Positions 20,559 through 24,644 of a DNA stretch of 24,970 bases are shown here, piece after piece. A program made the position numbers and the translations under genes. Under the pieces are notes generated by a model, which searched no databases, was not told the origin of the DNA, and saw only the letters and a program-made list of their open reading frames with translations. Each line of letters begins with the position of its first letter. The first letter of the stretch is position 1. Source of the DNA: a virus; IMG/VR virus record IMGVR_UViG_3300032214_000143, positions 1 to 24,970 of that record; one strand, written 5' to 3'.

Positions 20559-20822
20559 ATGTCAACAAGAATGTACGGCCCCGAAGAAAAAGCAAAACTA
20601 GAGCGTCTTATCAATGAGGGCTCCAATGTACTACGTGAAGTAGAAGATCTACAAGAAGGTCTCAAAGAAACTGTCAAAGCAGTTGCAGAAGAACTACAAA
20701 TCAAACCCAGCATTATCAACAAAGCAATTAAGATTGCACACAAAGATAATTGGAAAGATCACGAGCAAGAATGGAATGACATTGAGATGATTCTTGGTGT
20801 AACTAAGAGACTGCCCGAGTGA
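20559..20822 (+). CDS. small DNA-binding-type protein, possibly DsbA-like
   Basis: This 87-residue, all-helical, acidic/basic protein contains EEKAKLERLINEGSNVLREV, then LKETVKAVAEELQIKPSIIN and KAIKIAHKDNWKDHEQEW. The last part is similar in pattern to T4 DsbA (89 residues, a double-stranded DNA-binding protein linked to late transcription), which has an R-A-K-D-E-L-G...N-R-L-L-A-L-Y-H-K-D-N stretch. Length and order agree, but the identity is low by eye. It lies upstream of gp43 under a sigma70-type promoter. Confidence 0.6.
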   Translation: MSTRMYGPEEKAKLERLINEGSNVLREVEDLQEGLKETVKAVAEELQIKPSIINKAIKIAHKDNWKDHEQEWNDIEMILGVTKRLPE

Positions 20823-21109
20823 ACGAATTATTAAAACCAACATTTGACTGGATACGTGATGACTTTAGATCTCATCCAATTCGGTTTACTATTGAGCTTA
20901 TTGCTTGGGCTATTAGTATTGGTTGCAGTATTACTATGGCAGTTACGGTCCCCAACCCTCCGCTTCTTGCTCTTTATCCTATTTGGATTCTTGGCTGTGC
21001 TATGTACGCTTGGGCTGCTTGGACTAGGAAATCTTTTGGTATGTTGGCTAACTACATTTTGCTAACCGCCATCGATACCGTTGGCCTAGTAAGAATGCTA
21101 AGTAATTAA
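20819..21109 (+). CDS. three-segment membrane protein of unknown function
   Basis: This 96-residue protein has a GTG start overlapping the upstream stop as GTGA. Hydrophobic segments are at about 22-43, 48-68 and 74-93 (for example IELIAWAISIGCSITMAV), following a polar start NELLKPTFDWIRDDFRSHP. I recall similar proteins close to DNA polymerase genes in marine T4-like phages. The function is unknown; an inner-membrane location is likely. Confidence 0.6.
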   Translation: MNELLKPTFDWIRDDFRSHPIRFTIELIAWAISIGCSITMAVTVPNPPLLALYPIWILGCAMYAWAAWTRKSFGMLANYILLTAIDTVGLVRMLSN

Positions 21110-21150
21110 TATAGATGGTAGGCTGGGCCACAAACCGCACAGTTGGTATT

Positions 21151-21168
21151 TGCAAGCCACAAATTGCA
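21151..21168 (+). promoter_or_regulatory. putative translational operator hairpin for gp43
   Basis: TGCAA (21151-21155) and TTGCA (21164-21168) form a 5-bp stem with the 8-nt loop GCCACAAA. It sits directly against the Shine-Dalgarno ATAGGAG (21168-21174) of the polymerase gene. T4 gp43 represses its own translation through a hairpin with a 5-bp stem and an 8-nt loop at the same place. The loop octamer occurs again at 21127-21134. The loop sequence differs from T4, so binding is inferred from form and position. Confidence 0.5.
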
Positions 21169-21180
21169 TAGGAGAAAAAT

Positions 21181-23850
21181 TTGAGTTACGTAGACGCTTT
21201 CTATGATAGAGAGCAGGATATGATCAATGTTGTCGAACGAGATGACAAAGGTCAAAGACATTACAAAGAATATCCAGCTCGTCATATCTTTTATTACCCA
21301 GACCCTAAGGGTAAATTTACATCAATTTACGGACAGCCATTGTCCCGTGTAAGTTCTAAGAATGTTAAAGAACACAGAAAAGAACTTGCTATCTATAGCA
21401 ATAAAAAACTCTATGAAAGCGATATTAATCCAATTTATCGTTGTCTAGAAGATAACTATCTCAACGCAGATGCACCTAAACTAAATGTAGCCTGGTTCGA
21501 TATTGAGGTAGACTTTGACCCAGAACGTGGTTACGCATCACCCGAAGATGCATTTATGCCTATCACTGCTATTGCTGTTCATCTACAATGGTTAGATACA
21601 ATGGTATGCCTGGCTATTCCGCCCAAGACTCTAAGTATGGCCGAAGCTGAAAAGCAGGTAGCAGACTTTCCTAACACAATGTTGTTTTCTACAGAATCTG
21701 AAATGTTAGATACATTTCTAAATCTGATCGAAGATGCCGATGTCTTAAGTGGTTGGAACAGTGAAGGTTTCGATATCCCTTATACTGTTAATCGTGTTAC
21801 CAAAGTTCTAAGCAAAGAGGACACACGTAGATTTTGTTTATGGAATCAGTTTCCTAAGAAAAGAGAGTACGAAAAGTATGGAAAGGCCGCTGTTACTTAT
21901 GATCTTATTGGTCGTGTTCATTTGGACAGTCTCGAGTTGTACCGCAAGTACACCTATGAAGAACGCCACACCTACAGATTGGATGCAATTGGAGAAATGG
22001 AGATAGGTGAGAACAAGACAGTCTACGAAGGCACACTTGATCAACTATACAACAACGACTTTAAAAAGTTTATTGAGTACAATAGACAAGACTGTGCTCT
22101 ACTAGATAAACTAGATAAGAAACTAAAGTTCTTAGATCTTGCCAACACACTGGCACACGAATGTACTGTATTGCTACAGACTACTATGGGTGCTGTGGCT
22201 GTTACTGAACAGGCTATTATCAACGAAGCCCACAAGCGTGGATTCATTGTTCCTAATCGTCGTAAGATGGAAGAACATGGTGATACACAGGCTGCTGGTG
22301 CCTATGTTGCTTATCCCAAGAAAGGCATTCACGAATGGATTGGTTCACTAGATATTAATTCTCTGTATCCTTCTGCGATTCGTGCGTTGAATATGGGCCC
22401 AGAAACTATTGTTGGTCAGTTACGCCAAGACGGTACAAAAGATTATATTGCTGCCGAAATGGCTAAAGGAAGATCATTTGCCGCTGCCTGGGAAGGTGTG
22501 TTTGGAAGTTTAGAATACACTGCCGTAATGAATAGAGATGTTGGAAGGGATCTAACCATTGACTGGGAAGATGGAAGATCCGATACTCTAAGCGCGGCAC
22601 AGGCATATGATCTTATTTTTGAAAGCAATCAACCCTGGATGGTATCAGCTAACGGTACTATCTTTACCTACGAGAAGGAAGGTATTATTCCTGGACTGCT
22701 AAAGCGTTGGTATGCCGAACGTAAAGAGATGCAGAAGAAGTTAAAAGACTCTGTAGCCGCAGGTAACAAAATTGAAGAAGAATACTGGGACAAGCGACAG
22801 TTAGTCAAGAAGATTAACTTGAACAGTTTGTATGGTGCCATTCTTAATCCTGGATGCCGCTTCTTTGATAACCGTATCGGACAATCAACTACACTAACTG
22901 GCCGTGCTATTGCTAGACATATGGCTGGCAAGGTTAATGAGATTATCACAGGGACCAACGATCATATCGGAAAGGCAATTATATATGGCGACACTGACAG
23001 TTGTTATTTTAGTGCTTATAGCACTCTCAAGAAGGATATTGAAAAAGGAAATATCCCCTGGTCAAAAGAAAATGTCGTTGAACTCTACGACACCATCGGT
23101 GAAGAAGTAAACTCAACATTTCCTAAGTTTATGCAGGATGCTTTCCACTGTCCAAAGACTCGTGGCGAAGTTATCAAGGCAGGTCGCGAGATTGTTGCCA
23201 GTCGCGGCCTGTTCATTACAAAGAAACGCTATGCTGTTCTTTACTATGACAAAGAAGGTAAACGTGCAGATGTGGATGGCAAGCCAGGTAAGATCAAGGC
23301 TATGGGTTTAGACTTGAAGCGTTCGGATACTCCTGTGGTTATCCAGGACTTTTTAAGTGAAGTATTAACCAAAGTTCTAAATAACGGTACCAAGGAAGAT
23401 GTATTAGAGTACATTACTGATTTCCGCACAGAGTTTAAAACTCGACCAGGTTGGGAGAAAGGTAGCCCAAAACGTGCTAATAATATTACAGAGTATGCTA
23501 GTAAAGAAAAGAAAGCAGGCAAGACCAATATGCCCGGACACGTTCGAGCAAGCCTTAATTGGAATACACTAAAGCGTATGATGGATGACAAATACTCTAT
23601 GAATATTACAGACGGTGCCAAAGTTATTGTCTGTAAGGTCAAAGACAACCCAATGGGCTATACTTCAGTAGCGTATCCTGTTGATGAACTAAGATTACCT
23701 CAGTGGTTCAAAGACTTGCCTTTTGACGATGCTGAAATGGAAAATGCAGTCATCGACGAAAAGTTAGAAAACCTTATCGGTGTTTTGGAATGGGACATCA
23801 GTTCAACAAGGTCGGACAATACATTCAGCAAACTTTTTGATTTTGAGTAA
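21181..23850 (+). CDS. 43: DNA polymerase, family B (gp43)
   Basis: This is an 889-residue replicative polymerase with proofreading exonuclease. Exo I is FDIEV (D107, E109), Exo II WNSEGFDIPY (D198), Exo III YNRQDCALLD (D304). Polymerase motif A is SLDINSLYPSAI (D391), motif B KKINLNSLYGA near 543-552, motif C YGDTDS (602-607). The C-terminal FSKLFDFE resembles the clamp-binding tail of T4/RB69 gp43. The start is a TTG with AGGAG 7 nt before it, since no nearby ATG in frame has such a site. The downstream gp45 clamp is its partner. A hairpin before the start may allow autoregulation. Confidence 0.96.
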   Translation: MSYVDAFYDREQDMINVVERDDKGQRHYKEYPARHIFYYPDPKGKFTSIYGQPLSRVSSKNVKEHRKELAIYSNKKLYESDINPIYRCLEDNYLNADAPKLNVAWFDIEVDFDPERGYASPEDAFMPITAIAVHLQWLDTMVCLAIPPKTLSMAEAEKQVADFPNTMLFSTESEMLDTFLNLIEDADVLSGWNSEGFDIPYTVNRVTKVLSKEDTRRFCLWNQFPKKREYEKYGKAAVTYDLIGRVHLDSLELYRKYTYEERHTYRLDAIGEMEIGENKTVYEGTLDQLYNNDFKKFIEYNRQDCALLDKLDKKLKFLDLANTLAHECTVLLQTTMGAVAVTEQAIINEAHKRGFIVPNRRKMEEHGDTQAAGAYVAYPKKGIHEWIGSLDINSLYPSAIRALNMGPETIVGQLRQDGTKDYIAAEMAKGRSFAAAWEGVFGSLEYTAVMNRDVGRDLTIDWEDGRSDTLSAAQAYDLIFESNQPWMVSANGTIFTYEKEGIIPGLLKRWYAERKEMQKKLKDSVAAGNKIEEEYWDKRQLVKKINLNSLYGAILNPGCRFFDNRIGQSTTLTGRAIARHMAGKVNEIITGTNDHIGKAIIYGDTDSCYFSAYSTLKKDIEKGNIPWSKENVVELYDTIGEEVNSTFPKFMQDAFHCPKTRGEVIKAGREIVASRGLFITKKRYAVLYYDKEGKRADVDGKPGKIKAMGLDLKRSDTPVVIQDFLSEVLTKVLNNGTKEDVLEYITDFRTEFKTRPGWEKGSPKRANNITEYASKEKKAGKTNMPGHVRASLNWNTLKRMMDDKYSMNITDGAKVIVCKVKDNPMGYTSVAYPVDELRLPQWFKDLPFDDAEMENAVIDEKLENLIGVLEWDISSTRSDNTFSKLFDFE

Positions 23851-23909: not shown

Positions 23910-24644
23910 ATGAAAGATATTTTACAAGACATCGTGTCTCATACACAAAACCTAGGCTTCTTAACTACAGTTAAAGTTACAGGCGACGCAAAGAAAACAG
24001 TTATCAATTCAATGGCTGATGACCGTTCAGTTATTATGGAGGCTGAAACTGCTGCACCATATCCAGATATGATCGGTGTGTTTGGTATGCCACAACTTAA
24101 CAAGCTCAAATATTTGTTAGATGGTAATGAATACAAAGAAGATGCAAAAATTAGCATTACCTTTGCAGAACGCAATGGCGAATCTGTACCAGTAGGTATT
24201 CACTTTGAAAACAAAGACGGTGACTTCAAAAACGACTATCGTTTTATGAACACAGAAGTTATTAATGAGAAAATGAAGACTGTTAAGTTCCGCGGTGTTA
24301 AGTGGGATGTTGAGCTAGAGCCTAGTGTAGCTTCTGTACAACGTTTTAACTTCCAGGCTGGCGCACACAGCGAAAGTCCTACATTCCTAGCCAAGACAGA
24401 TAACGGCAATTTAAAATTTACCTTTGGTGATGCAAGTACACACGCTGGCGAATTTGTATTTGCTATGAGTGTTACAGGTAAATTAGATCGCGGTTGGACT
24501 TGGCCAGTGTTGCCAATCTTAAGCATCCTTAAGATTGCAGATGTCAACAACACCAAGATGTCGTTAAGCAACGAAGGTGCTATTCAGATTACTCTCGATA
24601 GCGGTCTTGCTACCTACAAATACATTATTCCTGCTCAGGCATGA
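23910..24644 (+). CDS. 45: sliding clamp (gp45)
   Basis: This 244-residue protein is slightly longer than T4 gp45 (228) and matches in order. It starts with a helix (DILQDIVSHTQNLGFLTTVKV). MIGVFGMPQLNKLKYLLDG (54-72) is the typical gp45 segment, GKLDRGWTWPVLPILSILKI marks the second domain, and it ends in strands ITLDSGLATYKYIIPAQA. The trimeric ring tethers gp43 to DNA, and in T4 it also activates late transcription with gp33 and gp55, which would fit the late promoters here. CAGGAG precedes the ATG. Confidence 0.9.
   Translation: MKDILQDIVSHTQNLGFLTTVKVTGDAKKTVINSMADDRSVIMEAETAAPYPDMIGVFGMPQLNKLKYLLDGNEYKEDAKISITFAERNGESVPVGIHFENKDGDFKNDYRFMNTEVINEKMKTVKFRGVKWDVELEPSVASVQRFNFQAGAHSESPTFLAKTDNGNLKFTFGDASTHAGEFVFAMSVTGKLDRGWTWPVLPILSILKIADVNNTKMSLSNEGAIQITLDSGLATYKYIIPAQA

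What the first reader, a model, noticed from the sequence alone, without database searches (positions are those of the whole stretch)
21127..21174. gp43 leader hairpin with the same dimensions as the T4 polymerase operator
TGCAA-N8-TTGCA forms a 5-bp stem with an 8-nt loop, immediately before the Shine-Dalgarno of a TTG-started polymerase gene. T4 gp43 binds a hairpin with a 5-bp stem and 8-nt loop there to repress itself. The loop octamer GCCACAAA is repeated 29 nt upstream (21127-21134), perhaps a second contact. The loop sequence is different from T4, so protein and RNA may have co-evolved.
Basis: partly seen in the sequence, partly recalled or inferred. Interest (0 to 1): 0.7.

Follow-up and report, generated by a model that had tools for sequence, protein, structure and literature searches.

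The report
Paired RNA knots before phage polymerase
Upstream of the DNA polymerase gene of a large family of uncultured phages sit two copies of a small folded RNA (a hairpin whose loop also pairs with bases just before it) next to or over the ribosome-binding site, which most likely lets the phage turn polymerase synthesis down, much as phage T4 does but with a different and so far undescribed RNA shape.

Summary
The hairpin is real, at the stated place, and conserved as RNA. In 55 distinct related leaders its stem keeps pairing through double changes. It has T4's operator dimensions (5-bp stem, 8-nt loop) but not T4's loop. The "repeated octamer" is the loop of a second copy of the same module 29 nt upstream. 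In both copies the loop's GCC pairs with a GGU/GGC just before the stem, so each module is a small H-type pseudoknot. Prediction scans support this: every gp43 leader with GCU in loop 1 has AGU upstream (10 of 10), and every one with AGU has GCU (7 of 7), none mixed. All 117 IMG/VR hits of a 16-base module pattern have a complementary stem (10 of 117 in bacterial genomes), and the 116 testable ones precede gp43. In a sister clade the stem overlaps the Shine-Dalgarno core in 38 of 56 leaders. Best reading: a translational operator of gp43, probably autogenous. Pseudoknots and location are shown; the ligand is inferred. No Rfam family matches, and a T4 review reports no evidence of a pseudoknot in its gp43 operator.

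The parts
21097..21104 (+). T4-late-promoter-like element GCTAAGTA, 12 nt before module 1
   Evidence: In relatives this place reads ATAAATA, CTAAATA or GATAAGTA, mostly 9-14 nt before the GGY. Its role as a promoter is inferred.
21117..21119 (+). Module 1, S1 5' strand GGU (pairs with loop GCC 21127-21129)
   Evidence: GGY or AGU in nearly all relatives; GGU/GGC with GCC, AGU with GCU
21122..21126 (+). Module 1, S2 5' strand GC(U)GG with one bulged base
   Evidence: Compensatory stems in relatives: GATCA/TGATC, AACCA/TGGTT, GCGG/CCGC, TGCAG/CTGCA
21127..21134 (+). Module 1 loop GCCACAAA (GCC = S1 3' strand; ACAAA = loop 3)
   Evidence: consensus GCCAYAAN in relatives
21135..21138 (+). Module 1, S2 3' strand CCGC
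21145..21147 (+). Module 2, S1 5' strand GGU (pairs with loop GCC 21156-21158)
   Evidence: Invariant in 95 leaders of A2; AGU with GCU in L231 and L262
21151..21155 (+). Module 2, S2 5' strand UGCAA
   Evidence: Inner three pairs fully covary
21156..21163 (+). Module 2 loop GCCACAAA
   Evidence: Consensus GCCNNAAA
21164..21168 (+). Module 2, S2 3' strand UUGCA
21170..21174 (+). Shine-Dalgarno AGGAG, one base after the module-2 stem
   Evidence: in a sister clade the SD core lies inside the stem's 3' strand in 38 of 56 leaders
21181..23850 (+). gp43-type family B DNA polymerase, TTG start
   Evidence: phrog_262 E=2e-204; RB69 gp43 1clq E=8e-64; N terminus aligned with ATG-started relatives

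Best explanation
The 5' leader of the gp43 mRNA carries two tandem H-type RNA pseudoknots (S1 = GGY:GCC, 3 bp; S2 = variable stem of about 5 bp; A-rich loop GCCNNAA). The second lies against, or in a sister clade inside, the Shine-Dalgarno sequence. Shown by sequence comparison: the two helices of each module, their strand, their exclusive place before the gp43 cistron or operon, and the overlap with the SD in the sister clade. Inferred: when the pseudoknots are folded and bound by a protein, the 30S subunit cannot reach the SD and translation falls. The most likely protein is gp43 itself, acting when it is in excess over primer-template, as in T4 and RB69. Two copies would allow cooperative or bidentate binding. 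A late-type promoter just upstream would put the pseudoknots at the very 5' end of the transcript.
For: Covariation of S2 in both modules and of S1. Reciprocal prediction tests of S1: GCU goes with AGU 10/10, AGU goes with GCU 7/7, none mixed; 3 to 6 separate changes on a gp43 tree. Module-2 S1 test: only the double change AGT/GCT found before gp43 (L231, L262), no single changes. RNAalifold picks GGY:GCC without being told. In all 95 rows of A2 the third S1 pair of module 2 is U-G, which pairs only on the sense RNA. Every pattern hit in IMG/VR (116 of 116 testable) precedes gp43 or its operon; one strong hit per contig in 19 large contigs. SD overlap in 38 of 56 clade-2 leaders, and SD within 4 nt in another 16. 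T4 and RB69 gp43 are known autogenous repressors acting at a hairpin in the same place (PMC3014915).
Against: No binding or expression data. The same review says some T4-related gp43 proteins do not autoregulate. The closest cultured relatives (gp43 about 50% identical or less) lack the element. In L092, L116, L231, L262 and four clade-2 loci one or more genes stand between the element and gp43, so control of gp43 there would need translational coupling or fails. The T4 loop bases UAAC are absent.
Confidence: 0.6

Rival explanations
1. Same pseudoknot operator, but the repressor or activator is another phage or host protein (for example a single-strand binding protein as in T4 gene 32, or a small unknown RNA-binding protein).
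For: T4 gp32 binds a leader pseudoknot (PMC3014915). The element also stands before inserted first cistrons in some loci.
Against: The element was found only before the gp43 cistron or operon, not before other genes. A general RNA-binding regulator would be expected to have several targets.
Confidence: 0.17
2. A small-molecule riboswitch: tandem pseudoknots sense a metabolite tied to DNA synthesis and gate the SD.
For: Compact pseudoknots that overlap the SD and tandem copies with a conserved loop are familiar in riboswitches (general knowledge: preQ1, mini-ykkC/guanidine-II). The S1 and loop bases are nearly invariant while the stems drift.
Against: Confined to one phage gene, with no Rfam match. 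Every conserved base except the loop A's is explained by pairing, which leaves little for a ligand pocket.
Confidence: 0.12
3. Cis-acting only: the 5' pseudoknots set a constant low translation rate or protect the 5' end of the transcript, with no ligand.
For: A late-type promoter element lies 9-14 nt upstream in most leaders, so module 1 would sit at the mRNA 5' end.
Against: Two nearly identical copies with invariant loop bases exceed what simple occlusion or 5' protection needs.
Confidence: 0.09
4. DNA-level inverted repeats bound by a dimeric DNA-binding protein, not an RNA structure.
For: The element lies just after a promoter-like motif.
Against: Stem sequence drifts freely while pairing is kept; the S1 pairing has U-G wobbles that match only the sense strand; the GGY-GCC pairing is not a palindrome; the element abuts or overlaps the SD.
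Confidence: 0.02

Closest known systems
T4 / RB69 gene 43 translational operator (autogenous repression by gp43)
   Same: Before a gp43-type polymerase gene; a hairpin of 5 bp and 8-nt loop next to the ribosome-binding site; conserved loop and variable stem.
   Different: Two modules instead of one; each is a pseudoknot, while the T4 review finds no evidence of one; loop GCCNNAAA instead of AAUAACUC; binding unproven here.
T4 / T2 / RB69 gene 32 leader pseudoknot
   Same: H-type pseudoknot in the leader of a replication gene of a T4-type phage, linked to translational control.
   Different: Gene 32 has one pseudoknot about 67 nt upstream followed by unstructured A+U repeats that gp32 coats; here two pseudoknots lie next to or over the SD, before gene 43, with a 3-bp S1 and no A+U repeat array.
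E. coli rpsO (S15) pseudoknot operator
   Same: Autogenous translational control by a leader pseudoknot (mentioned in PMC3014915).
   Different: Ribosomal protein gene; different sequence and a single pseudoknot.
Mini-ykkC / guanidine-II tandem-hairpin riboswitch
   Same: Two tandem small hairpins with the same conserved loop before the SD.
   Different: Guanidine-II hairpins interact loop to loop; here each loop pairs with bases just upstream of its own stem; different loops and gene context.

Membership tests
T4-type gp43 autogenous operator | Located in the leader of a gp43-type polymerase gene next to the ribosome-binding site | tested here: met
T4-type gp43 autogenous operator | Conserved hairpin, about 5 bp with 8-nt loop | tested here: met
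   Covarying 5-bp stem with 8-nt loop in module 2; T4 and RB69 leaders read for comparison
T4-type gp43 autogenous operator | Loop bases UAAC (T4, RB69) or UAAA (RB49) | tested here: not met
   Loop consensus is GCCNNAAA (module 2) or GCCAYAAN (module 1). UAAA can occur through the variable bases (e.g. GCCCUAAA) but is not conserved.
T4-type gp43 autogenous operator | Simple hairpin, no pseudoknot, single copy | tested here: not met
   Two modules, each with GGY:GCC pairing
T4-type gp43 autogenous operator | Bound by gp43, which represses its own translation | not testable with these tools
   Needs binding and reporter assays
Gene 32 leader pseudoknot | Before gene 32, bound by Ssb, followed by A+U repeats | tested here: not met
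   Gene downstream is gp43; module 2 abuts the SD
H-type RNA pseudoknot (structural class) | Hairpin loop pairs with sequence outside the stem, supported by covariation | tested here: met
   S1 double changes AGU/GCU, 3 to 6 separate origins, no single changes
Any Rfam family | Match to a curated covariance model | tested here: not met
   No match in the leader at E up to 1 against 4227 families

The most novel reading that the evidence does not exclude
A new class of ligand-sensing tandem pseudoknot (a riboswitch or a two-site ribonucleoprotein switch) that tunes phage DNA polymerase synthesis to the state of replication, unlike the T4 operator in shape and perhaps in ligand.
Probability: 0.15. 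Interest if true: 0.85.

Novelty: new variant of a known kind. Interest (0 to 1): 0.62.

Why it matters
The gp43 operator of T4 was the target of the first RNA SELEX experiment (stated in PMC3014915), yet how polymerase-operator pairs evolve beyond close T4 relatives is little known. Here is a widespread polymerase leader element with many natural variants, no Rfam match and a clear pseudoknot, in phages whose gp43 is recognisably T4-type. It makes the question of whether polymerase autoregulation persists, and how the RNA it reads changes shape, directly testable with one protein and one short RNA. The 2010 review also noted that the gene 32 pseudoknot might be the only viral example used in autoregulation of translation, so a second case, doubled and before the polymerase gene, would be of interest to RNA biologists.

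Tried and rejected
Single-sequence folding does not show the hairpin; it cannot model pseudoknots and was set aside. The octamer repeat as a chance repeat was rejected because both copies are loops of covarying modules. A second weak model hit in L133 (6551-6628) was read and lies in the 3' part of the coding sequence upstream of the clamp gene: judged chance. Pattern hits in bacterial genomes encode no gp43 and their stems pair in only 10 of 117: chance matches, used as control. Five 'AGT/GCC' cases in clade 2 from a first parser were a different upstream hairpin; the corrected parser gave none. GAT/GTC, GGT/GCT and GGT/GTC forms of module 2 were searched for and none stands before gp43. Distant DNA search of the leader in cultured phages gave nothing, and paper searches found no description of the motif.

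Full report
What was checked. The sequence is as described: TGCAA-GCCACAAA-TTGCA at 21151-21168, a second GCCACAAA at 21127-21134, AGGAG at 21170-21174, TTG at 21181. An exact TGCAA-N8-TTGCA occurs once in the window with 0.02 expected; the octamer repeat on its own is not significant. The downstream gene is a gp43-type family B polymerase (phrog_262; RB69 gp43 1clq, E 8e-64). Folding the single leader does not reveal the hairpin, so the case rests on comparison.

Relatives. The 80 closest gp43 loci of IMG/VR were fetched. All show the hairpin before the start codon, with stems TGCAA/TTGCA, TGTCA/TGACA, TGTCT/AGACA, TGCGA/TCGCA, TGTGA/TCACA, TGTAA/TTACA and TGAGA/TCTCA, and a loop GCCNNAA. They also show a second hairpin upstream with the loop GCCAYAAN. 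On 55 distinct leaders the module-2 stem pairs in 98.9% of cells, with double changes at three pairs and none of the slid controls close. On a covariance-model alignment of 95 distinct leaders spread over gp43 proteins down to about 64% identity, the whole structure has 266 double-change cells against 89 in shuffles, and a covariation score of 0.407 against at most 0.103 when slid. That alignment was fitted to the S2 stems, so S2 counts lean towards them; the S1 pairs were not part of the model.

The pseudoknot. Both modules are preceded by GGU or GGC, which can pair with the loop's GCC. RNAalifold, which cannot draw pseudoknots, chose GGY:GCC for module 1 unprompted. In module 1 of 141 distinct leaders, 134 have GGY with GCC, three have AGU with GCU, one has GGU with UCC, and three have lost the module (L114, L231 and L262). 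Two scans then tested the prediction. Leaders with GCU in loop 1, whatever lies upstream: 10 of 10 distinct gp43 leaders have AGU. Leaders with AGUU upstream, loop free to be GCC or GCU: 7 of 7 have GCU (the remaining hits of the first scan are not gp43 leaders). Scans of module 2 for AGU with GCY, GGU with GCU and GRU with GUC found, before gp43, only the double change AGU/GCU (L231, L262). On a gp43 tree of 116 rows the module-1 change needs 3 (well supported branches) to 6 events, always on both sides together; with only three supported independent pairs the sign test cannot reach significance, so the reciprocal scans carry the weight. L105 and L153 keep GGU/GCC in module 2 while module 1 has AGU/GCU, which shows the pairing is within each module. 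The third S1 pair is U-G in nearly all, which is a pair only in the sense RNA.

Specificity. All 117 have a complementary inner stem, those searched with the two-module model match it, and 116 lie before gp43 or its operon (L104 ends at the contig edge). The same pattern in bacterial genomes gives 117 hits of which 10 pair. The two-module model finds one strong site in each of 19 contigs of 45-238 kb. The closest cultured phages (Phosso, PA5oct, Atu_ph07, 121Q and others, gp43 about 50% identical or less) have no match.

A sister clade. Eighty loci around L262 (gp43 about 67% identical to the window's) were fetched. In 56 of 67 distinct leaders one module stands next to the start codon, always GGC or GGU with GCC. 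In 38 the SD core GGAG overlaps the stem's 3' strand (e.g. CCG-GCCATAAA-CGGAG), and in 16 more it lies within 4 nt of it. In place of module 1 there is a different hairpin, GAGTCG-stem-stem-CATGAATCA. In four of the eleven exceptions the element lies 330 to 1048 nt upstream, ahead of inserted genes. The persistent contact with the SD is the best evidence that the element controls translation.

Mechanism. Shown: two helices per module, sense-strand RNA, position against or over the SD, and exclusive association with the gp43 transcript in the data searched. Inferred: folded, and probably protein-bound, pseudoknots block the 30S subunit. The likeliest protein is gp43, because T4 and RB69 gp43 repress themselves at a hairpin in the same place (PMC3014915) and because no other gene was found to carry the element. 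The geometry is reasonable for a coaxial H-type pseudoknot: a 3-bp S1, a 5-bp S2, a first loop of 2-3 nt, no second loop, and an A-rich third loop of 5 nt (general knowledge). A late-promoter-like element 9-14 nt upstream of the GGY in most leaders suggests that module 1 is at the 5' end of the transcript; this is inference.

Comparison with the known. T4's leader reads AGCCU-AAUAACUC-GGGCU and RB69's AGAC-AAUAACUC-GUCU. Same dimensions, different loop, no second copy. The T4 review states there is no evidence of a pseudoknot in the gene 43 operator, and that the gene 32 pseudoknot may be the only viral example used in autoregulation of translation. The element therefore works like the T4 operator in place and probably in effect, but it fails two tested features of that family (loop bases, simple single hairpin) and is not filed as a member. 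No Rfam family matches. Prior description could only be checked in the open-access library held here.

Noticed in passing
L446-L525 leaders, about 55-30 nt before gp43: In the sister clade a different conserved hairpin, GAGTCG-(GTTC/GAAC, GCTC/GAGC, GTTGC/GCAAC, GCCC/GGGC)-CATGAATCA, stands where module 1 is in the window's clade; its stem also varies with pairing kept.
   Followed up: partly
L092:4840-4998, L116:409-600, L231 and L262 before gp43: A short ORF (in L092 and L116 rich in cysteine) is inserted between the element and gp43, so the element now heads a two-gene transcript.
   Followed up: partly
L474, L481, L505, L520 (clade 2): The element lies 330-1048 nt upstream of gp43, in front of one or more inserted genes of unknown identity.
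   Followed up: no
L114:101-191: Module 1 is replaced by a terminator-like hairpin (GTGGTTGA..TCAACCAC followed by seven T), while module 2 is kept.
   Followed up: no
window 7199, 15560, 15941, 19318, 19586, 23875 and 21097: T4-late-promoter-like octamers (GATAAATA, AATAAATA, TCTAAATA) lie shortly before several genes, including the putative sliding clamp gene at 23910.
   Followed up: partly
window 20559-20822: A DsbA-like (PF11126) transcription regulator gene lies two genes upstream of gp43.
   Followed up: no
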